DNA from: a virus | Strand: one strand, 5' to 3' | Length of the DNA stretch: 34,961 bases | Virus record (IMG/VR): IMGVR_UViG_3300030105_002171 | Location: 1 to 34,961 of that record | Part shown: positions 1 through 34,961 of the stretch, piece by piece | How the letters are laid out: every line of letters begins with the position of its first letter | Position numbering within the stretch: position 1 is the first letter of the stretch | Notes under the pieces: model-generated | The model's database searches: none | Told to the model about the DNA's origin: nothing | The model's input: only the letters and a program-made list of their open reading frames with translations | Made by a program: the position numbers and the translations under genes

Positions 1-52
1 TGTTGGCAGCAGCTGCCATGAATTTGCGTTGTCGTTTGCTAGTGCTTGGCAT
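1..52 (-). CDS. Small head-region protein, 5' fragment cut by the window edge
   Basis: This is the first 17 codons of a leftward gene (MPSTSKRQRKFMAAAAN) that runs off the left edge. The bases are identical to 33767..33818, the start of the complete 63-residue gene at 33627..33818. It follows the ART-like gene with a 3-base gap, exactly as the complete copy follows the second ART-like gene. It is best read as the same gene seen twice because the two ends of the sequence overlap. A true second copy cannot be excluded from the sequence alone. Confidence 0.8.
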   Translation of the reverse strand, partial: MPSTSKRQRKFMAAAAN

Positions 53-1171
53 TGCTTAATCCTCTAACAACTTACCAATAAACTCATCGACTGATGGTTC
101 GGCTATTACCTCGTCATTGCGTTTTAGGACTTTGGCGCGTCTGGCTAATTCATCGAATAGCACCATGTTACGGGTGCCGTCACCGGCTGCTCGACTTCCT
201 TGATCAAAGTATTTGATGCCGGGGATGCCTAGTTCGTCAAGGTGTTTACTAGCTGATTCCGCCGCGCTGACAGCTGTATGCCGGGTGGTTCTTGGCTGCA
301 AAACATCCCAAGGCGTCGATTGGATTTGCTTGCCCCCCTCTAGTTCAGTTAATGCTTGGTAAAAACTTTGTCCTGTGTAATCGTCCATCCAATCAGGGGC
401 AGCATCTACTCCAAACGCTTCCCTAGCATCATTCATTTGTTTTTCAAATTGTTTGGCTGCTGGGGAATCCAAAATTACTCGCTTAACACTCTCCGGTTGC
501 TTACTCAGCGGCGCATCCCAATCTAGCATTTTGGCTATGTCTTCATCGGGGACATCAATTTCGTAGAGGTAGCCTGATCCCTTTACTGATTCAACTAATT
601 CTGGTGAAGGATCAAAGTTTTTCAGGTTTGAGCTATAAGCCTCTGAAATAGCTTGCGAGGGGTAATCGAATCCTAGCCAATCATCAGCTTCTAGAGCCTT
701 AAGGACTCTTTCCTGCTGTGGAGAAAAATGCCCCTCAGCAACTAAATCCATAAGCTCGTCAAATTCCGCATCTTCTGGGATTTCTTCCAAAAATTTCCGT
801 CTCATTTCAGCGAAAGGCGTCGATCTTTGATACCCCTTTGCAACTCCGGGATTTTCAGCCACATACATTCCATGCCCTTTAGCCTGAGCACCTTCACCTG
901 TGCCTATCTTGGTGGGATCAAGTGCGTCAAATTTATGCGGGGAGCCTTGATAGGCCACCATTGCATCATCGAGCGCACCTTGACGTTGCAGGCTTTGGCC
1001 AAGCAAAGCAGCGCCTATATCATCCGTCGATGTCGGGGCGTAGTCTGCGCCTTTGAGCGCACGGCCAAGCAATTGCGCGCCTGTGGCTGCGCCGCCAACA
1101 AGAGCCGCTCCGGGAAACCAGTCCACCGCGTCCATTGTTAGGCCGAGCGTAGCTAAGTTTTTGTCAGTGAT
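1..1171. repeat. Left copy of the terminal overlap (allele A)
   Basis: This segment corresponds base for base to the right end of the window (33767..34961). The first 97 bases match exactly, and so do roughly the last 70 (to 1171). The middle is a mosaic of near-identical and unrelated blocks inside the ART-like gene. Replacing one copy by the other keeps gene order and reading frames. This fits the overlapping ends of a circular or circularly permuted phage genome carrying two alleles of one gene. Terminase-driven headful packaging, suggested by the P22-like gene set, would give such a circular map. Confidence 0.8.
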
Positions 1172-1405
1172 ATCGAAGCCAAGCGGCGAAAACAGCGTTG
1201 TTTCTTCGGGCAAAGCAAGCGTGGCTAAATCTTCCTGCGTGTAGCCTGACACCGGGCCACCTCCGGGCATCATCGATATTGGTATTCGAGCAATAGGGCT
1301 TGATTCTGCAAGGGGGTGATTAATGCCAAGGGTATTTCTCGATTGAGTCCGAGCGCCCATTCGTTCAGGTTTTTTGAGCAACGCATCAAACATCGATCTA
1401 GCCAT
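56..1405 (-). CDS. ADP-ribosyltransferase-like (ART-PolyVal type) phage protein, allele A
   Basis: A 449-residue protein of unproven activity. Residues 150-184 (YQGSPHKFDALDP, then GTGEGAQAKGHGMYVAEN) and later blocks YLYEIDVPDED, LGIPGIKYFD and GTRNMVLFD match the pattern of ADP-ribosyltransferase domains in phage polyvalent and MuF-associated proteins. Those domains are thought to enter the host with the DNA and modify host proteins. A Gly/Ala-rich hydrophobic stretch lies at about residues 97-118. The usual catalytic-type His of the first motif is Gln here (Q153), while the other copy in this window has HHGS, so this allele may be inactive. The start overlaps the terL stop (TAATG). It lies between terL and the portal cluster, in the late unit. 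ART family assignment is moderately sure; the target is unknown. Confidence 0.65.
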   Translation of the reverse strand: MARSMFDALLKKPERMGARTQSRNTLGINHPLAESSPIARIPISMMPGGGPVSGYTQEDLATLALPEETTLFSPLGFDITDKNLATLGLTMDAVDWFPGAALVGGAATGAQLLGRALKGADYAPTSTDDIGAALLGQSLQRQGALDDAMVAYQGSPHKFDALDPTKIGTGEGAQAKGHGMYVAENPGVAKGYQRSTPFAEMRRKFLEEIPEDAEFDELMDLVAEGHFSPQQERVLKALEADDWLGFDYPSQAISEAYSSNLKNFDPSPELVESVKGSGYLYEIDVPDEDIAKMLDWDAPLSKQPESVKRVILDSPAAKQFEKQMNDAREAFGVDAAPDWMDDYTGQSFYQALTELEGGKQIQSTPWDVLQPRTTRHTAVSAAESASKHLDELGIPGIKYFDQGSRAAGDGTRNMVLFDELARRAKVLKRNDEVIAEPSVDEFIGKLLED

Positions 1406-2898
1406 TAGTGATATTGCTCTGCTTTGCGCCGTCTGGTATTGGATTTGACTAGATCATTCATCGTCATCGTGGAAAGTCCGTCGATCTCGATAATGGGATT
1501 CTCTTTCACGAGTTTAGCATGAGGCACATATGGCCGACTCATTAGCCCATATCGAGCCTCATCGGCGGCATGATCCTCAGCCGTCGTATCCAAATCCTCG
1601 GGACGGGATCTATCGTGCTGTAATGCCGGTACTGTGCGAATAAAGTCAGTGCAAGTCGAAAAGACGTACATCATCGGACGACGGCCATATGGCTCGCCTA
1701 AGTCCTCGCCCATCATCCGTGCTCGCATTTGATCCCATCCACCCATTGCACCACGACGCCCAACCCGCTTATTGTCCGCCCTACGCCAATTAATACGCAT
1801 GCGCTCAACGATAGATGGCCCGCCATCCTGACTGAATGCGGCAGGATCAATAACGCTATATCGTATCGTATCACCACCATCGCGCTCTTTGATGCCTTCT
1901 GCGACTTCCTCAGCTGTTAGCTTCAAGCCAGTATCAGGCTTTGTAGCGCCGCTAGTGTCCTTAGCAGCGCCATACCACTCCCGATACCTGATAACAGCGC
2001 CACGGGGGATTACGGAGCCGTCAGGGGTGGTATACAAGTCCGGACAGACTGCCCACCATCCGACACTGAAAGGTTTCGCAGAACCCCAGTCACAAGATCT
2101 AAACCGCATCCAATCATCCGGCACTTTGAATGGGTGCAAAATATGTTCATCAGGGTTCCAGCAATCGAAGAATGCGCCATCGACTATCGTCCAATCGCCA
2201 TGCAACCAAGCGCGGACTAATTCAGCGCTACCGGATTGATACAATCGGGCGACGTATGTCGGATCTGACATCAATACCGGATTATCGGATAGCTTGGCCG
2301 GAATGAATACGCGGGATGTACGCACGCGCTTTTTGCTGAATGGGTTTAGATAATCCTCCCATATGATTTTGTTGCCCTCTGGCGCTGGATCGATATATCG
2401 CGCTTTAACCCACTGATGGCCGGGACCGCCGGGGTTACCGGTTGCGTGAAATTGCACGGGGATACCAGTCGCGGAGCGCAACGTAGCGCGTAGCAGATTG
2501 ATTGGCTCAGGGTTCGGCCAGTTCGTCAGTTCTTCGAAGAATAAATCCGTGTAGCTATGGCCCTGATAGTTACGCGCATCTTTGACGTTTTCGAGATACT
2601 CGAATCGTAACCTTGCGCCGCTGGGAAAGATCCATTGCCGATCTGCGTACTTTGCGCCCAATGGCCCGTATATATCCGCGCTGCGTGCTATAGCTTCACG
2701 CAAGTCTTCACGGCTCGATCTGAAAAAGATACCGACAGCCTTTCCGTACTGGCTAGCCTTGAGTCCAAAACAGCCAAGGGCTGCATCCGTTTTACCCCCT
2801 CCTCTACTACCCCCGAAGAAAATCTCGTCAGCTGGGCACGATAAGAAAGCGGCTTGCTGCTTACTCATTGGTGCCCATGCGATGGGGCTAGTTGACAT
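1405..2898 (-). CDS. terL: Terminase large subunit (ATPase/nuclease DNA-packaging motor)
   Basis: A 497-residue motor that pumps DNA into the procapsid and cuts it. The ATPase half shows an adenine-side Gln near residue 14-15, Walker A GGSRGGGKT at 29-37 and Walker B DLFFEE at 118-123, followed by the HATGNPGG coupling-type motif near 151. The RNase H-like nuclease half shows acidic residues at D270 (CDWG), D351 (VIDPAAF) and D442/D446. Length and domain order are normal for TerL. It overlaps terS by 11 bases and the ART-like gene by one, so the three are translationally coupled. The gene set suggests headful packaging, but the sequence does not prove it. Confidence 0.97.
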   Translation of the reverse strand: MSTSPIAWAPMSKQQAAFLSCPADEIFFGGSRGGGKTDAALGCFGLKASQYGKAVGIFFRSSREDLREAIARSADIYGPLGAKYADRQWIFPSGARLRFEYLENVKDARNYQGHSYTDLFFEELTNWPNPEPINLLRATLRSATGIPVQFHATGNPGGPGHQWVKARYIDPAPEGNKIIWEDYLNPFSKKRVRTSRVFIPAKLSDNPVLMSDPTYVARLYQSGSAELVRAWLHGDWTIVDGAFFDCWNPDEHILHPFKVPDDWMRFRSCDWGSAKPFSVGWWAVCPDLYTTPDGSVIPRGAVIRYREWYGAAKDTSGATKPDTGLKLTAEEVAEGIKERDGGDTIRYSVIDPAAFSQDGGPSIVERMRINWRRADNKRVGRRGAMGGWDQMRARMMGEDLGEPYGRRPMMYVFSTCTDFIRTVPALQHDRSRPEDLDTTAEDHAADEARYGLMSRPYVPHAKLVKENPIIEIDGLSTMTMNDLVKSNTRRRKAEQYH

Positions 2899-5676: not shown

Positions 5677-6312
5677 ATGAATATATTGATAGCTTGTGAG
5701 ACAAGCGGAGTAGTCCGGGAAGCGTTCCGCGCATTGGGACACGATGTTACATCATGTGACTTATTACCCGCAGACGATAGCAGCCCGCACCACATAGTCG
5801 GTGATTGCCGAGAGGTGATCAGTGCTGGTGGGCAGACTCGGTTAGTGCGTGCGTCCTTTGTTACAGATGTATGGGATCTAATAATCATGCATCCACCATG
5901 CACGGCACTATCTGTGTCCGGTAACCGGTGGTACGGGCGAAACATGCCGAAACATCAACAACGGCTTGATGCAATCCGGTGGACTATGGATCTTTGGACA
6001 TTAGCCCGGAGACACAGTGCGTCCGTTTGTATGGAGAATCCTGTCGGCGTTTTGCCGCTGAAACCGACACAGTACATTCAACCGTGGCAATTCGGGCATC
6101 CCGAAAGCAAAAAAACGGGATTGTGGTTATGGGGTTTGCCTGAACTGGAACCTACGGATTTACTACCAACCCCAGTTAATGGACGCTGGGATAATCAAAC
6201 GCCGAGCGGACAAAATAAACTCGGGCCGTCACCCGATAGATGGAAAATCCGAAGCAAAACATATGACGGAATCGCTCAAGCAATGGCAAATAAATGGGGA
6301 GCAGAACAATGA
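5677..6312 (+). CDS. DNA (cytosine) methyltransferase-like phage protein
   Basis: A 211-residue protein of a family common in phages. An N-terminal Rossmann-type start (MNILIACETSGVVREAF, residues 1-17) is followed by an acidic residue in SCDLLP. HPPCTALSVSG (72-82) resembles the PC catalytic loop of C5-cytosine methyltransferases, and ENPVGV (120-125) their ENV motif. The C-terminal block QTPSGQNKLGPSPDRW is typical of this phage group. It probably uses S-adenosylmethionine to modify DNA, perhaps to evade host restriction, but the target base is not shown by the sequence. The Shine-Dalgarno is poor. It heads a rightward run of overlapping small genes ending at the terminator at 7043. Confidence 0.7.
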   Translation: MNILIACETSGVVREAFRALGHDVTSCDLLPADDSSPHHIVGDCREVISAGGQTRLVRASFVTDVWDLIIMHPPCTALSVSGNRWYGRNMPKHQQRLDAIRWTMDLWTLARRHSASVCMENPVGVLPLKPTQYIQPWQFGHPESKKTGLWLWGLPELEPTDLLPTPVNGRWDNQTPSGQNKLGPSPDRWKIRSKTYDGIAQAMANKWGAEQ

Positions 6313-9243: not shown

Positions 9244-9421
9244 TCATCTGCTCGACGAAGACGAGGCCGTTTACACGGCGTCAGATCAGGCGCTCGAAGC
9301 GGCGGGCGAAGCTTATACCTTTCTGCGCCAGCGTCGGGGCGAGCTCGCTCCCGATGTGGTGGAGCAGATCCAGAGGCTAATGTACGCAATCGATGAATTG
9401 CTTGAAGGAGAGAATCAATGA
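9236..9421 (+). CDS. Small acidic helical protein (61 aa)
   Basis: Starts at 9236 with a good site (GGAGGGAG). It is strongly acidic and helical (LLDEDEAVYTASDQALEAAGEAYTFL and later VVEQIQRLMYAIDELL, described here in parts). It contains one copy of the recurring CGTTTACACG motif (9268-9277). The ATGA overlap with the ERF gene suggests coupled translation with recombination genes. Function unknown. Confidence 0.6.
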   Translation: MLDHLLDEDEAVYTASDQALEAAGEAYTFLRQRRGELAPDVVEQIQRLMYAIDELLEGENQ

Positions 9422-9879
9422 CAGATGAAATACAACCAGCCCAGGTTAAAGCGCCGCCCGTAAAGCTCTACGCGGCAATGGCGAAGGCTCGCAGTGAAAT
9501 GAAAGCGCCGAAGCTCGATGGCACTAACCCACACTTTAAGAGCAAATATGTGACGCTCGCCGGACTGCTGGAGGCTGTAATGCCTGCGCTGTCGGCGAAC
9601 GGCATCCACATTTGGCAAGCGCCTGTCGATGACTGTCTGCTAACCGTGGTGACGCATGAATCGGGCGAGTCGGTGGAGTATCGGAGCAAAATGCCAGCGC
9701 CGAAGGACGCGCAGCAGTTGGGCAGTTTTTTAACCTACCTCCGCCGGTACACGATCTCAGGCCTGATTGGCATCGCTGGGGATATTGACGACGATGCTGA
9801 GGCCGCTATGCCGTCCCGTTCGAACCGTGGCGGGCAACCGAAAGTCGTGGTTCATTCCTCGGCAAGGGATGAGTTGTGA
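9418..9879 (+). CDS. erf: ERF-family single-strand annealing protein
   Basis: A 153-residue protein with the hallmarks of the ERF family. LYAAMAKARSEMKAPKLDG is followed by NPHFKSKYVTLAGLLEAV, then THESGESVEYRSK, then QQLGSFLTYLRRYTISGLIGIAGDIDDDAE. ERF proteins form rings that anneal complementary single strands during phage recombination and circularisation. The partner exonuclease is the next gene, which it overlaps. It is on the short side for the family but has the full core. Confidence 0.92.
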   Translation: MTDEIQPAQVKAPPVKLYAAMAKARSEMKAPKLDGTNPHFKSKYVTLAGLLEAVMPALSANGIHIWQAPVDDCLLTVVTHESGESVEYRSKMPAPKDAQQLGSFLTYLRRYTISGLIGIAGDIDDDAEAAMPSRSNRGGQPKVVVHSSARDEL

Positions 9880-10772
9880 TGGCGGCGGAAACCGTGGAGA
9901 TGGAGCAGGGATCGGATGAATGGCTCGATCTACGGCGAAAGATGCGCACGGCATCGGAAACCGCGACGGTAATGGGGTGTAATCCATACCAAACGCCGCT
10001 ACAACTGGCGCGGCAGAAGCGCCAGCTCGATCCGCCAACTAAAAAAACGTATGCGATGGAGTTTGGTTTGGCGAACGAAGCAGCGGTGCGTAAAGCGGCG
10101 AGCGAATATTTGGCTTCGGATGATAGCGATTATGAGCCTGTGGTGCTGCAAGACGGAAATTACCTAGCCTCATTAGATGGCAGGCTGGGCGAACGAAGCA
10201 GATGGAGCGGTGATTCGATCATGGAGATAAAATGCCCGTCGAGCTCTAGATCGGGCGCATTGCAAAATGCAGTTTACGAGCCGCACTGGTGGCAAATGCA
10301 ACACCAGCTAATGGTGAGCGGGGCGAAGCGATGTCATTACGTTGTGCGACATCCTGATGACGGCGAACTGATTTTCAAAATTGTACTGCCTGATCTAGAT
10401 GCTTTTGCGGAATTACGCAAAGCGTGGGATACGTTTTGGCGGGAGTATATGGAATGCGATGAGGCGGACTTGATAGAGTGCGCTCCGATTTCAGATGATT
10501 TGATGCCGCTGGTTTCCGATTTTCATGCCGCTGTCGATGCGAAGCGTGTGGCCGAGGCGCGACACAAGGCTGCGCGGGCCGCGCTTCTGGCAGAATTGCC
10601 TGCTGAAACAGCAGCCGGCCACGGCCTGAGAGTCGTCAAATACGAGCGAGAAGGGAGTATCGACTGGGCTAAATACCAAGCTGATTATCCGGACATGGAT
10701 TTTACGAAATACCGAAAAGCAACTACACAACAAACCCGATTCATTGATCAACGAGGAAACGAAGATGCCTGA
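9879..10772 (+). CDS. YqaJ-like (lambda-type) recombination exonuclease
   Basis: A 297-residue PD-(D/E)XK exonuclease. QGSDEWLDLRRKMRTASE near the start and GCNPYQTPLQL are the usual YqaJ entry motifs. The catalytic residues are E67 (GLANE), D100 (ASLDGRLG) and E116-x-K118 (MEIKCPSSS), followed by the MQHQLMVSGAKRCHYV helix. It would degrade one strand from DNA ends and hand the other to ERF. The preferred start is ATG at 9879, overlapping the erf stop; a GTG at 9876 is one codon earlier. Confidence 0.92.
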   Translation: MAAETVEMEQGSDEWLDLRRKMRTASETATVMGCNPYQTPLQLARQKRQLDPPTKKTYAMEFGLANEAAVRKAASEYLASDDSDYEPVVLQDGNYLASLDGRLGERSRWSGDSIMEIKCPSSSRSGALQNAVYEPHWWQMQHQLMVSGAKRCHYVVRHPDDGELIFKIVLPDLDAFAELRKAWDTFWREYMECDEADLIECAPISDDLMPLVSDFHAAVDAKRVAEARHKAARAALLAELPAETAAGHGLRVVKYEREGSIDWAKYQADYPDMDFTKYRKATTQQTRFIDQRGNEDA

Positions 10773-11028
10773 ATATGACAACACAAACCGAGGCGCGATC
10801 TGGAAAAATGATCGCAAAACCACCGAAACGCAACCGGATTACACCGGCACGATCAATATTGAGGGCGTTGACTACTGGCTGAACGGCTGGCGCAGTCCAG
10901 AAGGCGCGAGCGACAGAGCGCCCGTGTTGAAGTTTTCTGTTGCACCAAAAGAAGCGCCTAAGCCGATCCCAGCGGCTGAAAACAATGAACTGTCCAACTC
11001 CGGTTTTGACGATGACATCCCGTTTTAG
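10765..11028 (+). CDS. SSB-like small protein with acidic DDDIPF tail
   Basis: An 87-residue protein: MPEYDNTNRGAIWKND, TGTINIEGVDYWLNGW, and a C-terminus GFDDDIPF. The tail matches the acidic tip by which bacterial SSB recruits partners. The body is shorter than an SSB OB-fold but has a beta-rich pattern. It lies in the operon directly after the exonuclease, with AGGA before its ATG. I read it as a single-strand-binding helper or SSB mimic of the recombination set. Confidence 0.6.
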   Translation: MPEYDNTNRGAIWKNDRKTTETQPDYTGTINIEGVDYWLNGWRSPEGASDRAPVLKFSVAPKEAPKPIPAAENNELSNSGFDDDIPF

Positions 11029-12613: not shown

Positions 12614-12889
12614 ATGAAAGAATTATCCCTTTTTTCTGGGGCAGGCGGCGGATTACTCGGCACTAAATTACTAGGATGGGAGCACTGTGGGTATGTCGAG
12701 TTCAATGATTACTGTCAGCGCGTTATCGCTCAAAGAATCGACGATGGGTTCCTCGATGAAGCGCCCATCTTCAGCGATATCAAAGCATTCATCAGTATAG
12801 ATGGCATAGACAATTTAACCACCGATCAAAAAGCCGAGGAGCTTGAAAACGCTGGCCTGATAGAGTTTTACAGAAATAGATTCAAATGA
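12614..12889 (+). CDS. Truncated C5-cytosine methyltransferase (N-terminal part only)
   Basis: A 91-residue protein starting MKELSLFSGAGGGLLGTKLLG, motif I of DNA C5-methyltransferases (SAM binding), followed by YVEFNDYCQRVIAQRI (motif II region) and EAPIFSDIKAF (motif III region). It stops before the catalytic PCQ loop (motif IV), and no other frame downstream continues the enzyme. The last 30 residues (LTTDQKAEELENAGLIEFYR) are unlike the family. It cannot methylate DNA alone. It may be a remnant, a subunit, or a decoy. The Shine-Dalgarno is missing, so translation may depend on coupling to the holin 10 bases upstream. Confidence 0.75.
   Translation: MKELSLFSGAGGGLLGTKLLGWEHCGYVEFNDYCQRVIAQRIDDGFLDEAPIFSDIKAFISIDGIDNLTTDQKAEELENAGLIEFYRNRFK

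Positions 12890-14452: not shown

Positions 14453-14465
<13 letters not shown>
13968..14465 (-). CDS. Membrane-anchored coiled-coil protein in the lysis block
   Basis: About 165 residues. One transmembrane helix (LLLVVPLLGAIGGAIWGGF, near residues 15-33) is followed by a long predicted coiled coil with heptads (IEKTLAVFEKENEAVEKLVDQF onward, described in part). I chose GTG 14465 because it lies just inside the end of the previous gene with GGTGAA upstream. An ATG at 14516 would add 17 residues but a longer overlap. The shape fits an inner-membrane spanin or holin accessory, but I see no spanin signature. Confidence 0.6.
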
Positions 14466-16200
<1,735 letters not shown>

Positions 16201-16210
<10 letters not shown>

Positions 16211-18476: not shown

Positions 18477-20237
18477 TTAATTCCTAATTGATTCGTAGGG
18501 CGAGCGTTGCATTAGAGCTTCTAACATTTCACGCCTATTTTTTTCATCTGCCCGATTTGCTACTCCGGTTGCAGTTATAGCGGCGGGCCTATAATCGGCT
18601 CCTGTTTTGGCGGCAAGTCCCGCTAATTGGCCCCCAGCATGGGCCGTTTCGCCGATTATTCGTGGCACTGAAGCAGGAATCAATGCACCCCACCAAGGGC
18701 TTTGCGTTAAAACGCCCATTAATGCAGCGCCGCCCAAAACTGTATTACCCCTAGTAAGTCCGCGAGGCTCCCATCCGCTCATGGCTTGCCCTGCAACAGA
18801 TGACGCTAACGGTTTTTTTGATGCCGCCTCTAGCGTGTCTACATAAGCGGCTCCCGTGCCAAAATCCGTAGAATTATTTCGCATAATTTTGGATAGCTTT
18901 CTAGCAGCAGCATCTACACTAGATCCCGACGTAAGACTAAGCGTTTTGTTGATTTCGTTAATTTCGTCAGTAGCTTTTGAGTAATCACTCATAACTTCCG
19001 CATAATCCGGCGCTTGATTTTTAATAATGTCGCCTACCGCGTGGTATACGGATTGTGTAGCAAGATTTTGTTGTTCGTTTTTATTTTTCCAATCAATAAG
19101 GCTACCAATTCTTTGTTTTATAAAATCCATGCCCTCGACCGTATGCCACAGATCAGGCTGCTCTAGTCTAAATTCCTCTACCGTTTCTTTGACTTTATTT
19201 AATGCCGATTCTATTTCTGATGAGGCGGATTTCCCTAAGCGAGTATTGTCCGCTATGGCCGTATCTAATGCTTCCTCGACAAGACTGTAATCCAGCACTG
19301 TTGCGTCTTGGGTAATAGGCTCTATATTTTGTTTATAATGTGCGTTGCGTTCAGCTCGCATTGCGGCAAGCCCATCTTTAGCGTTCTGCACTAATTCTTG
19401 TATGCTTCCTTCCCCGCGCATAAACTTCCTAAAAGCTCTGCCTTGTTCTCCACCCTCAAACCCTGATTTTACTGCTTGAACGATTGGTGCAGAGCCAGTT
19501 CCACTAAGAGCAGATGGAACGAAAGTTAGTAAATTCTGCACGCCGGGTTGCTTCATTCCAAATTTTGCTACCTCGCCGCCTCCTCTGAGCGCTGAATACA
19601 TCGGATCGGCAAATTTTGCCGCATCGGCTACGGCCTGCCCGCCTTTTGCTAGGCTTTCGGCACCCGTAGCAAATGCCCCAGCCGCCCTAGACGCGCGGGG
19701 AAAATTGAGCTGACGATTAATTTGAGGCATCACCAACGGGTTAGAAGTGGCATCGGAGAGAACACGCGCTCCTTTACCTAATATTCCAGAAGCTTTAGCA
19801 ACCGCCATACCTCCGCCAGTAAAGAATGCCGATAGATCGGATACGGCTCCTGCTGGATCACTAGCCAAAGTTCGTCTTAATCCTGCAAACGCATCACCTT
19901 CGTCGCCACCATATCGCTTTACAATAAAGTCTCCGAAGGCGTCGGCTGCTGATTCGTCCAATTCCAAACCTGGAATTACCTTAGAAGCTACGCCTTTTCC
20001 TAAATCTGCGACGGCGGTAATAGTGTCAACGGGATGCCTAACCATTTGCCAAATATCATTAGCCATTTGCTTACCGCTCTCGGCAGCATTTTCTCGCATT
20101 AGTCCAGGAACCTCCGCCCAATCTGGCGTAAAAGGTGCTTCGCCAGACGCTATCGATTCGTCACCGGAACCTATACGCGGCTTAATAGCATGAGACTGGG
20201 CATCTTTAAGCAGAAGCTGTTTGTAAAAATCACTCAT
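18477..20237 (-). CDS. Internal virion or DNA-ejection protein (586 aa)
   Basis: A 586-residue largely helical protein with Ala/Gly-rich stretches. WQMVRHPVDTITAVADLGKG near residue 65 is a motif I associate with podovirus ejection proteins. A hydrophobic segment near residue 495 (GNTVLGGAALMGVL) could insert in a membrane. It has a strong site (AAAGGAGG). Such proteins leave the capsid with the DNA and help it cross the envelope. Assignment is by composition and position. Confidence 0.65.
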   Translation of the reverse strand: MSDFYKQLLLKDAQSHAIKPRIGSGDESIASGEAPFTPDWAEVPGLMRENAAESGKQMANDIWQMVRHPVDTITAVADLGKGVASKVIPGLELDESAADAFGDFIVKRYGGDEGDAFAGLRRTLASDPAGAVSDLSAFFTGGGMAVAKASGILGKGARVLSDATSNPLVMPQINRQLNFPRASRAAGAFATGAESLAKGGQAVADAAKFADPMYSALRGGGEVAKFGMKQPGVQNLLTFVPSALSGTGSAPIVQAVKSGFEGGEQGRAFRKFMRGEGSIQELVQNAKDGLAAMRAERNAHYKQNIEPITQDATVLDYSLVEEALDTAIADNTRLGKSASSEIESALNKVKETVEEFRLEQPDLWHTVEGMDFIKQRIGSLIDWKNKNEQQNLATQSVYHAVGDIIKNQAPDYAEVMSDYSKATDEINEINKTLSLTSGSSVDAAARKLSKIMRNNSTDFGTGAAYVDTLEAASKKPLASSVAGQAMSGWEPRGLTRGNTVLGGAALMGVLTQSPWWGALIPASVPRIIGETAHAGGQLAGLAAKTGADYRPAAITATGVANRADEKNRREMLEALMQRSPYESIRN

Positions 20238-28710: not shown

Positions 28711-29685
28711 TTAAGCCTTCATTACGCCTTGCAGCGAACGATTGCTCACAGTCATATTGCCCTGCCAGATAATTGGCAGCACTTCAGCGTCTTGGTTTAC
28801 CGATGATTTCTCGGGGACTTCCGTCCAGTTTGCGTCGCGATGGGCGCAAAGGCCGATGTAATCGGTATTCAAGAAGTATGCGTGTTGATCAGGCATACCC
28901 GCCGCTAGACTGTCATATACCACGTCCGCGCCTTTGTACTTGAGCGAAGTCGTGCCGGTTTTCAGATCTGTCGTGTTGGTATAACGCTGGATTGAAGTCT
29001 GACTGTTGTCGAAGAACGTAAAATACGTGTCATCCATCACAATCAAATCAGGCTGATCATTGTTTCGCGTCAACTGCAACCACAGCGGAAGCATCATGCT
29101 TTCGATAGTGGTAGCCGATGGCGTGATCGCACCGCCGCCTTGAATTGGCGCAGCAGCGGACTGAAGTCCTGACTTCCAGAACGTATATGTCGATGAGTTG
29201 ATACCGCCAACCGTTCCCGTACCTGCATCAGAGACTAACGCTTGCAAACCGTTGATCTGGTTCGCTGCGGTGCCATCCGAATACATGTCGCTGGAAAAGT
29301 TGTTACCGGCAGTCTTCATGGCGTTTTTCAGCTTGTTTTTAACGAGCTTAATGACGCCTTCCTTACCGGCATTCTGACGAACTTCGAGGCCGCTGGCGAC
29401 GACGTTAATCGCAACCTGTTTCCACGAAAAGTTCGCAGCGGTAAACACTTCCGACTGCGCGATGTCTAGCGTGTCATATCCGCTATAGCGTTGGTACGTG
29501 CCATTCTCGGCATAATCCAACGGCACCTGAATTTCCCAACCGCCGGAGATCAGATCAACGCGATCCTTTTCCGTTAGCCGCTGGTGCAACGCAGTGTGGT
29601 TTGAAACGTTATCCGTAACGTATTTGTTTTTGAAGTGACGATACGTGATCGCCGATATTTCTGTAAAGCTACTATTAGCTGGCAT
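28711..29685 (-). CDS. Major capsid protein
   Basis: A 324-residue coat protein starting MPANSSFTEISAITYRHF. WEIQVPLDYAENGTYQRYSGYDTLDI and the following VAINVVASGLEVRQNAGKEG, then LKNAMKTAGNNFSSDMYSDG, are the strand-helix pattern of HK97-fold coats of this size. Its start has AAGAAGG upstream. It lies between scaffold and decoration genes. The HK97 fold is inferred; the order and length fit well. Confidence 0.88.
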   Translation of the reverse strand: MPANSSFTEISAITYRHFKNKYVTDNVSNHTALHQRLTEKDRVDLISGGWEIQVPLDYAENGTYQRYSGYDTLDIAQSEVFTAANFSWKQVAINVVASGLEVRQNAGKEGVIKLVKNKLKNAMKTAGNNFSSDMYSDGTAANQINGLQALVSDAGTGTVGGINSSTYTFWKSGLQSAAAPIQGGGAITPSATTIESMMLPLWLQLTRNNDQPDLIVMDDTYFTFFDNSQTSIQRYTNTTDLKTGTTSLKYKGADVVYDSLAAGMPDQHAYFLNTDYIGLCAHRDANWTEVPEKSSVNQDAEVLPIIWQGNMTVSNRSLQGVMKA

Positions 29686-29704: not shown

Positions 29705-30745
29705 CTACGCTGATATGCGCTCGTCAACTAAGGCTCCGATAAAATCATCTACATTTTTTGAATGAGCAACATTTGGCGGCAATGTGCCAGTAGATTGAAT
29801 GTTAGTTCCCCCGGCGCGTCGAGCGTTTGCGGCAGTTTGTTTTGCCTTGGCGACTCGTTGCGTGTTTGCTTTCGCTTGTCGATCAATTTCCATTTTCGAT
29901 GACACGCCATCATTGGCCGCTGCGGCCATCTTGTATGCTATGTCGAGATATTGATCGTGCGAGAGTCCGGGTTTACTTTCTTTCAAGCTAACGACGATCG
30001 GAACCATTTCATCATGGAGATCCTCATAAAACGGATGCGCTGCCGCAAAATCGTTTATGACGCCGCTTACTACTTGGCCTTGCTGCTGTAATTGTTGCTG
30101 GTTCTGTTGTGCAATATGATTTTCTTGAGCTGCTATTCGCTGCTGCAAATCAACAATTTGAGGATCGCTAGGGGCTTGTTGGCCTCCAGCGTGTTGGTTA
30201 GCTACATCAGCTAAGGATAATCCGCGACTTTCGAGAAGATAACTAGTAAACCCAATCGGATCTCTTTGCGCATAATCGGATAAAGAAAGTAGCTGTTCAA
30301 AACCCTGGGCTACATTCATACCGTTCATCGCAAATTGCTCACGCCTTGAGCCAGCTACCCTGTCGAGATCTTCGTAATATTTCCTTTGCTCTGCAACTTC
30401 CATCGTTTTTTTCGTGTAATCAGCCTCTTGCTCCTTAACGCGATCTGAAATCCATTGCTGGCTCTCAGGCGGTAAAGCGTAATATGCCTCACGATCTTTC
30501 GCCGACATCGACTGAGGCGCTGTAGTGATCTGAGATTCAGGCTCAGCGTTTCCCTCGTCAGTTACGGTTTCCGCCGATACTTCGACGGCTTCTTGGGGTA
30601 CGGATTCCTCCGCACGATCCCTAATTTCTTCAGCAGGGGATGACTCAATATCGGATGCTTCGGCAGCGTCAAACTGCTCACTAATAAAGTCACCAATAGA
30701 TTCCTCTACCGGCTCCGCACCAATTACTGCATCATCATCAGCCAT
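29705..30745 (-). CDS. Scaffolding protein
   Basis: A 346-residue acidic, Gln-rich helical protein just before the coat gene. I chose ATG 30745 (MADDDAVIGAEPVEESIGDF) with AGGGTGA upstream. Residues up to about 100 are very acidic. A charged coiled region follows (SDRVKEQEADYTKKTMEVAEQ, in part), then a Gln-rich stretch (QQNQQQLQQQGQ) near 220. The C-terminus is basic (KAKQTAANARRAGG), as scaffolds use to hold the coat. It is likely released before DNA enters. Confidence 0.82.
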   Translation of the reverse strand: MADDDAVIGAEPVEESIGDFISEQFDAAEASDIESSPAEEIRDRAEESVPQEAVEVSAETVTDEGNAEPESQITTAPQSMSAKDREAYYALPPESQQWISDRVKEQEADYTKKTMEVAEQRKYYEDLDRVAGSRREQFAMNGMNVAQGFEQLLSLSDYAQRDPIGFTSYLLESRGLSLADVANQHAGGQQAPSDPQIVDLQQRIAAQENHIAQQNQQQLQQQGQVVSGVINDFAAAHPFYEDLHDEMVPIVVSLKESKPGLSHDQYLDIAYKMAAAANDGVSSKMEIDRQAKANTQRVAKAKQTAANARRAGGTNIQSTGTLPPNVAHSKNVDDFIGALVDERISA

Positions 30746-31086: not shown

Positions 31087-33513
31087 TTATTGCAACATAT
31101 TGCCTTGATCATCAACCACAACCGTAGTTTCAGTCACTTCTGGCTCGCCAGCCACAAGCATTGTTGTTTCTGCCAAAGGCAAATTAGTCGCAGACACCAC
31201 AGATTTAATGCGATCCATAATTTCCGCTGCTCGATTGAGTGCCTGCTCTGGATCTGTCAGTGTCTCATCGCCACCACCGAACTCCGCCATGATTGTCTTA
31301 GCCAGTTCGACTTGACGCTGTTTATCAGCCTCCATCGCCTCGAACTGCATTTTTTCGCGAGCCATCAACATGTCTGCTTGTATCTTGTTCGCCACATCAG
31401 GCTCTGGCTTCTGCGCCTCAAATTCCTTAATCGCTATTTCGCGCTCTCGCAATACCAATTCTTTTTCTTGCATCGCTAGATCGGCTTGCTTGATCTGAGA
31501 CTCTAACGTCATCTTCGCTTGATCAATCTGCATCTTCTGCTGAACTTCTTGTTGTTTGATCTGGGCTTCCTGCGCCTCAATCTGCAACTTCATTTGCAAC
31601 GCTTGCTCGACGCCTGCGCCCTCTTGCTGCTCTGCATTTGCTGTTGGATCGTTCTCGCCAATCATATCGAGTGCGTCCTCGACTTCGCGCCCAAGTTTGA
31701 ATCGACGCACAGCGGACATAATCATCGCTTTAGCCGCTTCAATCGGTAAATATCCAGCTTCTACCGCTGGCCCGGCGTCAGCAATAAATGCGGAGACACC
31801 TTGCAGCAGTTGGGTAATAGCTTGCTGATCAGCGGCGTAATCGCCAGAGATCGTAGAATCTGTCTCAATATCGACACGAAAACTGCGCTGCTTGTCGTCA
31901 CGCAAAAGCTGGATGCACTCATCCCACGTCGGTTTTTCCAGTATTTCCAGCATTTCCGGTGTCAGTGCGGGCGGAGCGGGCGGTACGGGCGGCGGCGCTA
32001 ATTCTGGTTGTCCGGGTGCCATAGGTGGCCCCATCGGTGGTGCTTGCATTGCCATGCTTTGCATCTGAGTTGTGATTATTTGTTGTTTTTCTTCCATTGT
32101 CGGCAACTGAATATCAGTCATCATCTGCAAAGACTCTGACGTGAATTGCTCGCTAATAATTTCAGCAGCAATACGAATTAAATCCCTAGCGTATCGCTGT
32201 ATGTCCCGGCGTGAATCATCGAGGCGCATTGTGCCGAACTGCACCTTGAGCTGCTGTGCGCCCAATGTCTCCATCGCCGCAGAGCTACCGCGCATAATGT
32301 CAGCAATGCCGGTGATTTCGTAAATGGTTGTCTTGATCTGCTCCCGCTGCTGGTAGAGCTGCCCGAGAATGCCTGCGATCTTCTCAATCGGCCACATCCA
32401 GATAGCATTCGCGAGTCCGCCAGATTGCATCAGCGGCAACACATCTTGCGCCGGAACCATCATATTCTCAGACGCATCCATGAGGTTCTGCATCTCGGTG
32501 ATGGTGCTGTCGTAAATGCCACGCACTTTGCACGCTGCAATAATGCCCGAAATTCTAAGCGTAATTTTGTCCAGCTCGTCGGCTTGATCACGATAAAACC
32601 GAAACGGCTCAACCGGCACCAAGCTGTCAGTGCTTTCCATCGCGTAGAGCGGGCGAGGCGTTGGAAAGAAGTTTCTGAGCTTTAATGGATCTTCTTCAGT
32701 CTTCAACGGGCGCTCTTTTAACGACTTGGAGATGTAAATCACCTCTTTTTGACGGTTACACCACACTTCCCATATCGTCGCTCTCTTAAACGTATCGGTT
32801 ATTGGCGCGCCATCTTTATCGTCCATTCCCATCGGGGCATAATCAAGCGTGACTTCCTCGCCCATCTTGTCGCCGAATTTTGATTTGAGTTCGTCGCGTG
32901 TCATCAAATGCCGAAATGCTACCCACTGGACTTGTTCCCAGGTTTGCCCGGGGCCGTGCCGAAAATCCGCCCAGCCGACATGCTCAAACTTAACTTCCTC
33001 GCCTTGCAGGGATTCGTAGCTGTCACCGCTCATTTCGTCGGTTTCGTCAGCAAACGCAGGGTTATAACGGACTCGGGTAACGCCGCGACCGCAGAGCTGT
33101 TGATCTTTCACCGCTAATCGCATGTACCGATCAAAGTCGCACTCATCCATCGTGAATGACAAACAGCGCTCAAGGACTTCGGAGACTTCTTTGCCGATGG
33201 GATCTGCATCCCGATACCGGCGGCGAACATCAGGTGACGGGCTTTGGTTATACAGAGTCGGGCAAATCGTCTGTACGTTGCTGTACAGAATGTTGAATCG
33301 ATTTGCGTTGTTATATCTCCCGGGCTGCGTGGAGTCTGTGTTCTCATCACGATAACGCGCCTCGACATCCCGCGCTCGCTTGCGCCAATCGGCTTCCTGC
33401 TTATCCGCTAAATCAAGCTCAGTCACCCAGCGATTAACAACCCCCGCTGGGCCTTTGCCTGCATCGGCTGGAGTTTCCATCGAGCCGTCATTGTTATAAT
33501 CGTTATCAGGCAT
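31087..33513 (-). CDS. Portal protein (P22-like, large)
   Basis: An 808-residue protein, the size of P22-type portals. The clip and wing region (residues 30-260) includes RYNNANRFNILYSNVQTICPTLYNQ, with later QWVAFRHLMTRDELKSKFGD and RPLYAMESTDSLVPVEPFRFY. A middle helix block (KTTIYEITGIADIMRGSSA) is the stem region. The end has a long Gln/Glu-rich coiled coil (about 640-720). Such portals form the DNA gate and often carry long helical barrels. The start has AAAGGG and GGAG upstream and overlaps the small basic gene by 8 bases. Confidence 0.9.
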   Translation of the reverse strand: MPDNDYNNDGSMETPADAGKGPAGVVNRWVTELDLADKQEADWRKRARDVEARYRDENTDSTQPGRYNNANRFNILYSNVQTICPTLYNQSPSPDVRRRYRDADPIGKEVSEVLERCLSFTMDECDFDRYMRLAVKDQQLCGRGVTRVRYNPAFADETDEMSGDSYESLQGEEVKFEHVGWADFRHGPGQTWEQVQWVAFRHLMTRDELKSKFGDKMGEEVTLDYAPMGMDDKDGAPITDTFKRATIWEVWCNRQKEVIYISKSLKERPLKTEEDPLKLRNFFPTPRPLYAMESTDSLVPVEPFRFYRDQADELDKITLRISGIIAACKVRGIYDSTITEMQNLMDASENMMVPAQDVLPLMQSGGLANAIWMWPIEKIAGILGQLYQQREQIKTTIYEITGIADIMRGSSAAMETLGAQQLKVQFGTMRLDDSRRDIQRYARDLIRIAAEIISEQFTSESLQMMTDIQLPTMEEKQQIITTQMQSMAMQAPPMGPPMAPGQPELAPPPVPPAPPALTPEMLEILEKPTWDECIQLLRDDKQRSFRVDIETDSTISGDYAADQQAITQLLQGVSAFIADAGPAVEAGYLPIEAAKAMIMSAVRRFKLGREVEDALDMIGENDPTANAEQQEGAGVEQALQMKLQIEAQEAQIKQQEVQQKMQIDQAKMTLESQIKQADLAMQEKELVLREREIAIKEFEAQKPEPDVANKIQADMLMAREKMQFEAMEADKQRQVELAKTIMAEFGGGDETLTDPEQALNRAAEIMDRIKSVVSATNLPLAETTMLVAGEPEVTETTVVVDDQGNMLQ

Positions 33514-33626: not shown

Positions 33627-33818
33627 TCACGCATACCGCCCACCTGTCGATGTCAATGCGCCGATCATACTCGGCTTTGCCACGTTTTTCTTTTTCCGCT
33701 TATCTGCGCCATGAAAGTCTTGAGCGACGGACTGCGATATCCCCGCCTTTTTAGCAAAACCGGGGTTGTTGGCAGCAGCTGCCATGAATTTGCGTTGTCG
33801 TTTGCTAGTGCTTGGCAT
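33627..33818 (-). CDS. Small conserved head-region protein (63 aa)
   Basis: A 63-residue basic protein: MPSTSKRQRKFMAAAANNPG, FAKKAGISQSVAQDFHGADK, RKKKNVAKPSM. The first 43 residues match a small protein I have often seen next to head genes of phages and prophages; its role is unknown. The last 20 residues are shared with the next gene. It lies 3 bases after the ART-like gene. Confidence 0.7.
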   Translation of the reverse strand: MPSTSKRQRKFMAAAANNPGFAKKAGISQSVAQDFHGADKRKKKNVAKPSMIGALTSTGGRYA

Positions 33819-34961
33819 TGCTTAATCCTCTAACAACTTACCAATAAACTCATCGACTGATGGCTGCGCTATTGTCTCGTCATTGCGTTTAAGGACTTTG
33901 GCGCGTCTGGCTAAGTCATCGAATAGCACCATGTTGCGGGTGTCTTTCCCCAACAGCGTTTTAGCAATTTTACCCCATTGATGTTTCTTAATTCCGCCTC
34001 GGCTTCCTGCATCGAAGTATTTGATGCCGGGGATGCCTAGTTCGTCCAATCGTTTAGAAGCAGCTTCCTGAAAATCATAACTGCTTGTCGCCCCCGCATC
34101 CTTTTGCATCATTCTGTATAATTTCTCGCCCGTGTATTCCATCGGGATTTCGTCGTTATACAATACGCCTTTGTCCCTATCCCGCCGCACCCGACGCCCT
34201 TGTGGCCCAGAATCATTGATTAAGTCCCGCTTCTTTGCTCTGGCTACATTAGTTTTCGCGGCCAATTCTTCGGCAAATGGGAGCAGTGCATTTTGCACAC
34301 TCTCCGGCTGCTCACTCAGCGGCGCATCCCAATCCAGCATCTTGGCTATGTCTTCATCGGGGACATCTATTTCGTAGAGGTAGCCTTTCTTTTCTATCGA
34401 CGGGCCAATCATATCTAAAACTTCATTAGTGAGAACTTTGTCCCCCCATGCACGTCTAGCCATATCCTCAAACTCTGGATTGCTCGTTAGCATTCTATAT
34501 GCTTCGCGTGATCCCTCAGTCGTGACATCATCAAATCCCCAGGAGGCATCATTAATCGGAACATTGTTTTTTATATGCCATAACGCCGTCTTAACGTCTG
34601 TGGCTGCCGAAGGTTGTCCAGCTTTAACATAACCTCCCGCTACATCAGGATTCTCAGCCACATACAATCCATGCCCTTGAACTTGTGCGCCTTGCCCTGC
34701 GCCTATTTTTTTGGGATCAAGTGCGTCAAATTTATGCGGGGAGCCATGGTGGGTAACCATTGCATCATCAAGATTGCCTAGGCTTCGGCCAAGCAAGGCA
34801 GCGCCTATATCATCCGTCGATGTCGGGGCGTAGTTTTTGCCTTTGAGCGCACGGCCAAGCAGTCCCGCGCCTGTGGCTGCGCCACCAACAAGAGCCGCTC
34901 CGGGAAACCAGTCCACCGCGTCCATTGTTAGGCCGAGCGTAGCTAAGTTTTTGTCAGTGAT
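33767..34961. repeat. Right copy of the terminal overlap (allele B)
   Basis: Counterpart of bases 1..1171. Matches exactly at its first 97 bases and its last roughly 70, with diverged blocks between. It is 24 bases longer than the left copy. If the circle is closed through this copy, the genome is 33,790 bp; through the left copy, 33,766 bp. Confidence 0.8.
33822..34961 (-). CDS. ADP-ribosyltransferase-like (ART-PolyVal type) phage protein, allele B, N-terminus off the edge
   Basis: The frame is open to the right edge (ITDKNLATLGLTMDAVDWF), so the true start lies outside; by analogy with allele A it would lie about 80 codons further. The first motif is HHGSPHKFDALDPKK with the expected His, followed by GQGAQVQGHGLYVAEN. 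Later blocks YLYEIDVPDEDIAKMLDW, LGIPGIKYFD and TRNMVLFDD are the same as in allele A. Between them are inserts unlike allele A (for example the stretch around YRMLTSNPEFEDMARRAW and the basic GPQGRRVRRDRDKG). It is the more intact-looking version of the two for an ADP-ribosyltransferase. Confidence 0.7.
   Translation of the reverse strand: MTDKNLATLGLTMDAVDWFPGAALVGGAATGAGLLGRALKGKNYAPTSTDDIGAALLGRSLGNLDDAMVTHHGSPHKFDALDPKKIGAGQGAQVQGHGLYVAENPDVAGGYVKAGQPSAATDVKTALWHIKNNVPINDASWGFDDVTTEGSREAYRMLTSNPEFEDMARRAWGDKVLTNEVLDMIGPSIEKKGYLYEIDVPDEDIAKMLDWDAPLSEQPESVQNALLPFAEELAAKTNVARAKKRDLINDSGPQGRRVRRDRDKGVLYNDEIPMEYTGEKLYRMMQKDAGATSSYDFQEAASKRLDELGIPGIKYFDAGSRGGIKKHQWGKIAKTLLGKDTRNMVLFDDLARRAKVLKRNDETIAQPSVDEFIGKLLED

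What the first reader, a model, noticed from the sequence alone, without database searches (positions are those of the whole stretch)
33767..34961. The two ends of the window are two alleles of one locus
Bases 1..1171 and 33767..34961 agree exactly at both outer edges but diverge inside the ART-like gene. Either copy closes the circle with the same gene order, giving 33,766 or 33,790 bp. A phage with otherwise one sequence but two versions of a single gene points to allele exchange or diversifying selection at that gene. If the two copies instead stand in tandem in one genome, the phage carries two ART-like effectors.
Basis: partly seen in the sequence, partly recalled or inferred. Interest (0 to 1): 0.75.

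Follow-up and report, generated by a model that had tools for sequence, protein, structure and literature searches.

The report
Swappable effector gene in a phage
The two ends of this phage contig carry two versions of one gene, which related phages keep rebuilding by swapping pieces; it probably encodes a protein loaded into the phage head and delivered to the host, so one phage population seems to hold several versions of the same tool.

Summary
Observation confirmed. Window 1-1171 and 33767-34961 are two versions of one locus, identical over 97 and 77 bp at the outer edges. Inside are 83-95% identical islands separated by unalignable blocks.

The gene lies between large terminase and a 63-aa gene plus portal. 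In relatives this slot is empty (4 contigs) or holds one highly mosaic 'cargo' ORF, never tandem ART ORFs. Cargo modules (ART-PolyVal-like, ParB_N, LPD23, unknown) are joined by short conserved islands; different blocks match different partner phages. Two contigs, 99.8% identical, differ by one ~350-bp module bounded by a 27-bp repeat. The phage encodes Erf-like annealing protein, RecE-like exonuclease and SSB.

New: the repeated cargo tail (PSVDEFIGKLLED) resembles the C-terminal helix of the putative scaffold (SKNVDDFIGALVDERISA; VDDFIGAL invariant in 16 homologues). I infer a capsid-loading tag.

Best reading: a population polymorphism in a single-copy, virion-loaded effector slot, caught at an assembly break. 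It works like the T-even internal-protein hotspot, with an apparent C-terminal scaffold-like tag. Not shown: read-level allele frequencies, packaging, enzymatic activity. Allele A has Q where the family has its catalytic H; both alleles are below the Pfam cut-off.

The parts
56..1405 (-). cargo gene, allele A (449 aa, ART-PolyVal-like)
33822..34961 (-). cargo gene, allele B (379 aa present; N-terminus runs off the contig end)
1..97 (.). exact shared edge, left (start of the 63-aa gene plus cargo tail); identical to 33767-33863
1095..1171 (.). exact shared edge, right (77 bp, cargo N-terminal part, about aa 79-103); identical to the last 77 bp
851..961 (-). island 1 of A (MVAYQGSPHKFDALDPTKIGTGEGAQAKGHGMYVAEN)
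   Evidence: B copy 34650-34760
494..571 (-). island 2 of A (YLYEIDVPDEDIAKMLDWDAPLSKQP)
   Evidence: B copy 34305-34382
191..232 (-). island 3 of A (LGIPGIKYFDQGSR)
   Evidence: B copy 33999-34040
113..178 (-). island 4 of A (GTRNMVLFDELARRAKVLKRND)
   Evidence: B copy 33879-33944
59..100 (-). tail of A (EPSVDEFIGKLLED), scaffold-like peptide
33825..33866 (-). tail of B (QPSVDEFIGKLLED)
1405..2898 (-). terminase large subunit, upstream border of the slot
33627..33818 (-). 63-aa gene, downstream border of the slot
31087..33513 (-). portal protein (P22-type)
29705..30745 (-). putative scaffold (between portal and capsid genes, all-helical model)
   Evidence: Pam5 synteny
29729..29752 (-). VDDFIGAL, C-terminal peptide of the scaffold, invariant in 16 homologues
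28711..29685 (-). major capsid protein
9418..9879 (+). Erf-like single-strand annealing protein
   Evidence: phrog_2324 E 1e-34
9876..10772 (+). RecE-like exonuclease
   Evidence: phrog_434 E 4e-42
10744..11028 (+). single-strand DNA binding protein
   Evidence: phrog_18154 E 1e-17

Best explanation
The contig ends carry two natural alleles of one single-copy 'cargo' slot between terminase and portal, present in one phage population. A short-read assembler most likely walked allele A, the shared genome and allele B, and stopped. The slot encodes a modular ART-PolyVal-like protein whose modules are exchanged between related phages by homologous recombination at short conserved islands, probably through the phage's own Erf/RecE/SSB system. 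The conserved C-terminal tail, which resembles the C-terminus of the phage scaffold, probably loads the protein into the procapsid so that it enters the next host with the DNA. Swapping the inserts between fixed core strands would change the target or evade a host counter-measure. Shown: two allelic versions in the record, single-copy hypervariable slot in relatives, mosaic exchange, tail-scaffold similarity. Inferred: one population, assembly mechanism, recombinase used, packaging, effector action.
For: Two versions with identical edges. Relatives with 97-99% identical terminases differ in this gene while flanks stay 85-92% identical at DNA level. The slot is empty in L132, L133, L135 and L150, and in phages with 72-78% identical terminases only short stretches separate terminase and portal. 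Blocks are shared with different partners: A with L006 in the second variable block, L013 with L014 at 93% over 485 bp, L086 with L088 at 98% over 459 bp, L087 with L088 at 96% over 562 bp, L096 with L138 at 99% over 795 bp. L013 and L137 are 99.8% identical but differ by a ~350-bp ParB_N module between 27-bp repeats. L007 and L012 resume 95% identity at the small gene after unrelated effector halves. Four-fold-site identity of islands exceeds flanks (L014 0.84 vs 0.41, p 5e-8; L013 0.80 vs 0.45, p 3e-5). Erf, RecE and SSB are present; no reverse transcriptase, serine resolvase or tyrosine integrase. Tail versus scaffold C-terminus: score 36, with 0 of 8447 internal windows reaching it. Both are predicted helices. 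Foldseek matches ART-PolyVal-like phage proteins at E 7e-14.
Against: No reads are available, so both alleles in one population is inferred from 97-bp and 77-bp exact edges; B could come from a closely related phage sharing those edges. If the edges marked one assembly k-mer they should be equal, and they are 97 and 77. Allele A and several relatives have Q in place of the family's catalytic H. Some cargo proteins end in a different tail (DDEKMRRALLRN), so the scaffold-like tail is not universal. The scaffold identity rests on position and fold only; Pam5's scaffold shows no sequence similarity. Nucleotide-level constraint could add to island conservation; for the closest relatives L006 and L010 the four-fold-site excess is not significant.
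Confidence: 0.7

Rival explanations
1. Tandem duplication: one genome carries both copies side by side and the assembler broke between them.
For: Both copies are open and related. Multi-module cargo proteins with two ART-like parts exist in relatives (L088, L143).
Against: No relative with a covered slot has two cargo ORFs of this kind in tandem. A direct join reads into a stop after two codons (sequence). Either copy alone restores the standard gene order.
Confidence: 0.06
2. Inter-species chimera: allele B belongs to a different, closely related phage species and was joined to this genome by the assembler.
For: Several related phages with different cargo occur in the same samples (for example L007 and L010, both 3300031623).
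Against: Other related phages are only 85-92% identical in the flanks, whereas the edges here are exact over 97 and 77 bp; B is contiguous with the main genome on its left side.
Confidence: 0.18
3. Targeted diversification inside the phage, by a diversity-generating retroelement or an inversion or shufflon system.
For: Localised variation in one gene between constant flanks.
Against: No reverse transcriptase, serine recombinase or tyrosine recombinase found in the record; no further template copy in the window; variants are whole blocks with indels that recur in other phages.
Confidence: 0.03
4. The conserved tail is only a structural end of the ART fold or a recombination anchor, and its likeness to the scaffold is convergence without packaging function. 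(This competes with the packaging step only, not with the allele reading.)
For: A 13-residue amphipathic acidic helix is a simple sequence; some cargo proteins lack it at the very end; the tail DNA differs at many codons from the scaffold gene end.
Against: The tail follows ParB_N, LPD23 and unknown modules as well as ART; scaffold VDDFIGAL is invariant in 16 homologues; no internal window of the proteome scores as high.
Confidence: 0.4

Closest known systems
T-even internal proteins IPI-IPIII and their variable loci (PMC12373910, PMC9026906)
   Same: Variable virion-loaded proteins that share only a short capsid-targeting peptide, encoded in a genomic hotspot; individual members inhibit specific host defences.
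   Different: Unrelated podovirus; apparent tag is C-terminal and recurs after internal modules; it resembles the scaffold's own C-terminus; the variable protein is ART-like or polyvalent; packaging here is untested.
Polyvalent proteins with ART-PolyVal domains (PMC5512222; PF18760)
   Same: Domain kinds (ART, ParB, LPD), late-gene location, predicted packaging; the authors raised recombinational variability for the kinase cassettes.
   Different: Here the recombination is seen directly between near-identical phages, with islands as joints; the ART part of A and B is below the Pfam cut-off.
T4 Alt
   Same: ART carried in the phage head and injected (PMC5512222, PMC9026906).
   Different: Different ART family; one protein, not a swapped slot.
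Engineered P22 cargo loading through the scaffold C-terminus (PMC9962691)
   Same: Scaffold C-terminal coat-binding segment used as a loading tag.
   Different: The P22 case is engineered and uses a basic helix-turn-helix; here a natural acidic short helix is proposed.
Genomic islands and microdiversity in marine virus assemblies (PMC6487183)
   Same: Within-population variation at islands breaks short-read assemblies.
   Different: Here the record keeps both alleles at its two ends.
Polymorphic toxin systems (PMC3482391)
   Same: Constant part with exchangeable C-terminal effector cassettes.
   Different: Phage slot; no immunity gene seen; swapping also occurs inside the effector domain.

Membership tests
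ART-PolyVal (PF18760) | Profile score above gathering cut-off | tested here: not met
   A 13.4 bits, B 16.9 bits, cut-off 31.2; relative L143 reaches 59.9, best stretch in its second ART-like part
ART-PolyVal (PF18760) | H in strand 1, Y in strand 2, D in strand 5 (PMC5512222) | tested here: inconclusive
   B has HHGS, A has YQGS (Q for H); Y of YVAEN kept in both; a D of NMVLFD is present but strand numbering not verified
ART-PolyVal (PF18760) | Fold similarity to ART-PolyVal-like phage proteins | tested here: met
   Foldseek against BFVD E 7e-14, though low TM over full length; no significant PDB match; core strands confident, mean pLDDT 60.7
Polyvalent proteins | Several effector-type domains in one polypeptide, next to virion genes | tested here: met
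   Met in relatives: ART + ParB_N + LPD23; A and B themselves show only the ART-like part
Virion-packaged effector (T4 IP/Alt type) | Present in virion and injected | not testable with these tools
   Needs virion proteomics
T4 IP capsid-targeting sequence | N-terminal 10-19 residue propeptide cleaved by the prohead protease | tested here: not met
   Shared peptide is C-terminal; no prohead protease search was run
Scaffold protein | Located between portal and capsid genes, helical, conserved coat-binding C-terminus | tested here: inconclusive
   Position and all-helical model fit; Pam5 gene at this position is annotated scaffold but no sequence match; coat binding untested
Diversity-generating retroelement | Reverse transcriptase and template repeat | tested here: not met
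   No RVT_1 in the record; no extra repeat copy in the window

The most novel reading that the evidence does not exclude
A phage uses a copy of its scaffold's short C-terminal peptide as a natural loading tag on an exchangeable series of injected effectors, and the DNA of that same tag is a crossover point by which modules are gained, lost and swapped. One population then keeps several effector alleles in circulation.
Probability: 0.42. Interest if true: 0.78.

Novelty: new variant of a known kind. Interest (0 to 1): 0.62.

Why it matters
If true, effector diversity in these uncultivated podoviruses is generated by cassette exchange in a fixed slot, and the tag gives a sequence handle to find virion-loaded effectors without proteomics: search for proteins that share a C-terminal peptide with the scaffold. 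It would also be an independent, convergent counterpart of the T-even internal-protein hotspot, and it explains why a contig of this group ends here.

Tried and rejected
Tandem duplication: no supporting relative, and a direct join reads into a stop. Retroelement, resolvase and integrase: none found. PDB Foldseek: no match above noise; RES-type structures appeared only at E>6. hhalign of the scaffold family with the Pam5 scaffold: nothing. Profile search of PDB sequences with the ART alignment: nothing. NCBIfam and Pfam on the 63-aa gene, the scaffold and the 799-aa cargo of L007: nothing. The alternative cargo tail DDEKMRRALLRN was looked for in other window proteins; only a weak likeness near the end of 18477-20237. 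Host: nearest genome hits are terminases 41-67% identical (the 67% one a short stretch), mostly Rhizobiales, too distant to name a host. The 77-bp edge equals a common assembler k-mer size, but the 97-bp edge does not match it, so I do not use it as proof. In some searches my scripts closed the window's ends in memory to check the reading frame and gene order of each circle, and one search printed the resulting reading of allele B; no fold or family search used such a joined gene.

Full report
Observation. Bases 1-1171 and 33767-34961 are two versions of the same stretch. The outer 97 bp (left) and 77 bp (right) are identical. Between them, islands of 95%, 83%, 94% and 87% DNA identity alternate with stretches that cannot be aligned. 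Both copies are open reading frames on the minus strand: allele A has 449 aa, and allele B has 379 aa and runs off the contig. The record itself contains only two of the four junctions needed for two circles; the other two rest on the exact edges.

Where the gene sits. On the minus strand the order is terminase large subunit, cargo gene, a 63-aa gene, portal, a 119-aa gene, putative scaffold, capsid protein. Scans of IMG/VR with the terminase, both alleles and the portal gave about 170 loci. Contigs with 97-99% identical terminase (L006-L012) keep this order. Their flanking DNA is mostly 85-92% identical to the window, but the cargo gene is alignable only in islands. In contigs long enough to compare, cargo identity (35-64%) is far below terminase, portal, scaffold and capsid identity.

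Slot content. The slot is empty in L132, L133, L135 and L150, and phages with 72-78% identical terminase have only short stretches between terminase and portal. Otherwise it holds one cargo ORF of 441 to 1218 aa, sometimes with extra genes. In L013 and L087 these are a QueE (TIGR04349, 338 bits) and an unknown 252-aa protein; L091 has an extra 112-aa ORF. I saw no case of two ART-like ORFs side by side. Modules recognised by Pfam in the cargo ORFs are ART-PolyVal, ParB_N and LPD23. L007, L008 and L009 have an N-terminal part like the others but no ART part.

Mosaicism. Pairs share different blocks with different partners. Allele A shares the second variable block with L006, whereas allele B shares the KKHQWGKIAKT insert with L006. 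L013 and L014 share 485 bp at 93% although their terminase regions are 77.5% identical. L086 and L088 share one block at 98%, L087 and L088 the ParB_N module at 96%, L096 and L138 an end module at 99%. The clearest case is L013 against L137 (the L087 contig): 99.8% over 3291 bp, then 100% over 224 bp, differing by a ~350-bp module that lies between two 27-bp copies (25/27 identical) of the tail-coding sequence, with a few clustered changes at that joint. L007 and L012 are 92% identical through the terminase and the first ~160 residues of the cargo, then unrelated, then 95% identical again from the start of the small gene.

Recombination rather than constraint. At four-fold degenerate sites, islands are more alike than terminase and portal: for L014 0.84 against 0.41 (p 5e-8), for L013 0.80 against 0.45 (p 3e-5), and also for L087 and L096. 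For the closest relatives (L006, L010) the difference is not significant. Residual nucleotide-level constraint cannot be excluded. In the window pair, identity begins to fall at residue ~104, close to the border where A's similarity to L010 (aa 109) and L006 (aa 118) begins, and it ends inside the tail.

Machinery. The window encodes an Erf-like annealing protein (phrog_2324, E 1e-34), a RecE-like exonuclease (phrog_434, E 4e-42) and a single-strand binding protein. By established knowledge, annealing recombinases of this type act on short and imperfect homology; that they act here is inference. No reverse transcriptase, serine resolvase or tyrosine integrase was found.

The tail. A and B end in PSVDEFIGKLLED. 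The same peptide closes modules of L012, L087, L088, L096, L134 and L138, including internal positions. Among window proteins the only other clear hit is the C-terminus of the putative scaffold, SKNVDDFIGALVDERISA: PSSM 18.7 against a shuffled-proteome 95th percentile of 12.7 and maximum of 22.6 in 200 shuffles. With BLOSUM62 it scores 36, and none of 8447 internal 25-residue windows reaches that. VDDFIGAL is invariant in 16 scaffold homologues that are 47-94% identical overall to the window's. The models place a helix on both peptides, and the scaffold model is all-helical with loose ends. A gene at the same position in Pseudanabaena phage Pam5 is annotated as scaffolding protein, but hhalign finds no sequence match. 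In P22 the scaffold C-terminus binds coat and scaffold fusions are used to load cargo (PMC9962691); T4 loads internal proteins by a short N-terminal peptide (PMC9026906). From this I infer that the cargo tail is a loading tag. Some cargo proteins end instead in DDEKMRRALLRN (L007, L014, L088, L143), so there are at least two end types.

What the protein is. Pfam places A and B near ART-PolyVal but below the cut-off. Foldseek finds ART-PolyVal-like phage proteins at E 7e-14 and nothing significant in the PDB. The conserved islands correspond to the confident core strands (149-155, 180-183, 279-285, 396-401, 411-416) and the variable blocks to lower-confidence helical inserts. Allele B keeps the H of the described H-Y-D site (PMC5512222); allele A has Q, as do several relatives. 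Enzymatic activity is therefore uncertain, especially for A.

How it most likely works. A population carries several cargo alleles in one slot. Co-infecting relatives exchange blocks at islands and at the tail. The protein is loaded into the procapsid by its scaffold-like tail and enters the host with the DNA, where it modifies or blocks a host factor; the inserts probably set the target. The T-even precedent is close in function: internal proteins share only a packaging leader, sit in a hotspot, and individually inhibit specific GmrSD restriction enzymes (PMC12373910). Island-type variation inside viral populations is known to break short-read assemblies (PMC6487183), which would account for the record's two ends.

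Verdict. The tandem reading is unlikely. The wider finding is a mosaic effector slot with a putative scaffold-like tag: a new variant of a known kind.

Noticed in passing
L086, L088, L096, L132, L133, L151, L152 (terminase region): Relatives with a similar portal carry a different terminase that shares at most about its last 56 residues with the window's terminase, so the terminase itself also appears to be exchanged, with its C-terminal end as a joint.
   Followed up: partly
L013:1822-3214 and L087:497-1889: Two extra genes in the slot: a 7-carboxy-7-deazaguanine synthase (QueE, TIGR04349) and an unknown 252-aa protein, possibly related to deazaguanine DNA modification.
   Followed up: partly
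window 30686-30700 (scaffold N-terminus): The putative scaffold carries a similar motif near its N-terminus (SIGDFI; SMDDFM in distant homologues), as if the same short motif were used at both ends.
   Followed up: partly
L007, L014, L088, L143 cargo C-termini: A second recurrent cargo end, DDEKMRRALLRN, whose partner in the virion was not identified.
   Followed up: partly
window 12614-12889: 91-aa ORF resembling only the first part of a DNA cytosine methyltransferase (SLFSGAGGGLLGTKLLGWEHCGYVEFNDYCQRVI).
   Followed up: no
window 14453-16210: 585-aa ORF with long PEPEPE and MDTMDTM repeats.
   Followed up: no
window 5677-6312: Protein matching phrog_757, DNA methyltransferase (E 9e-59).
   Followed up: no
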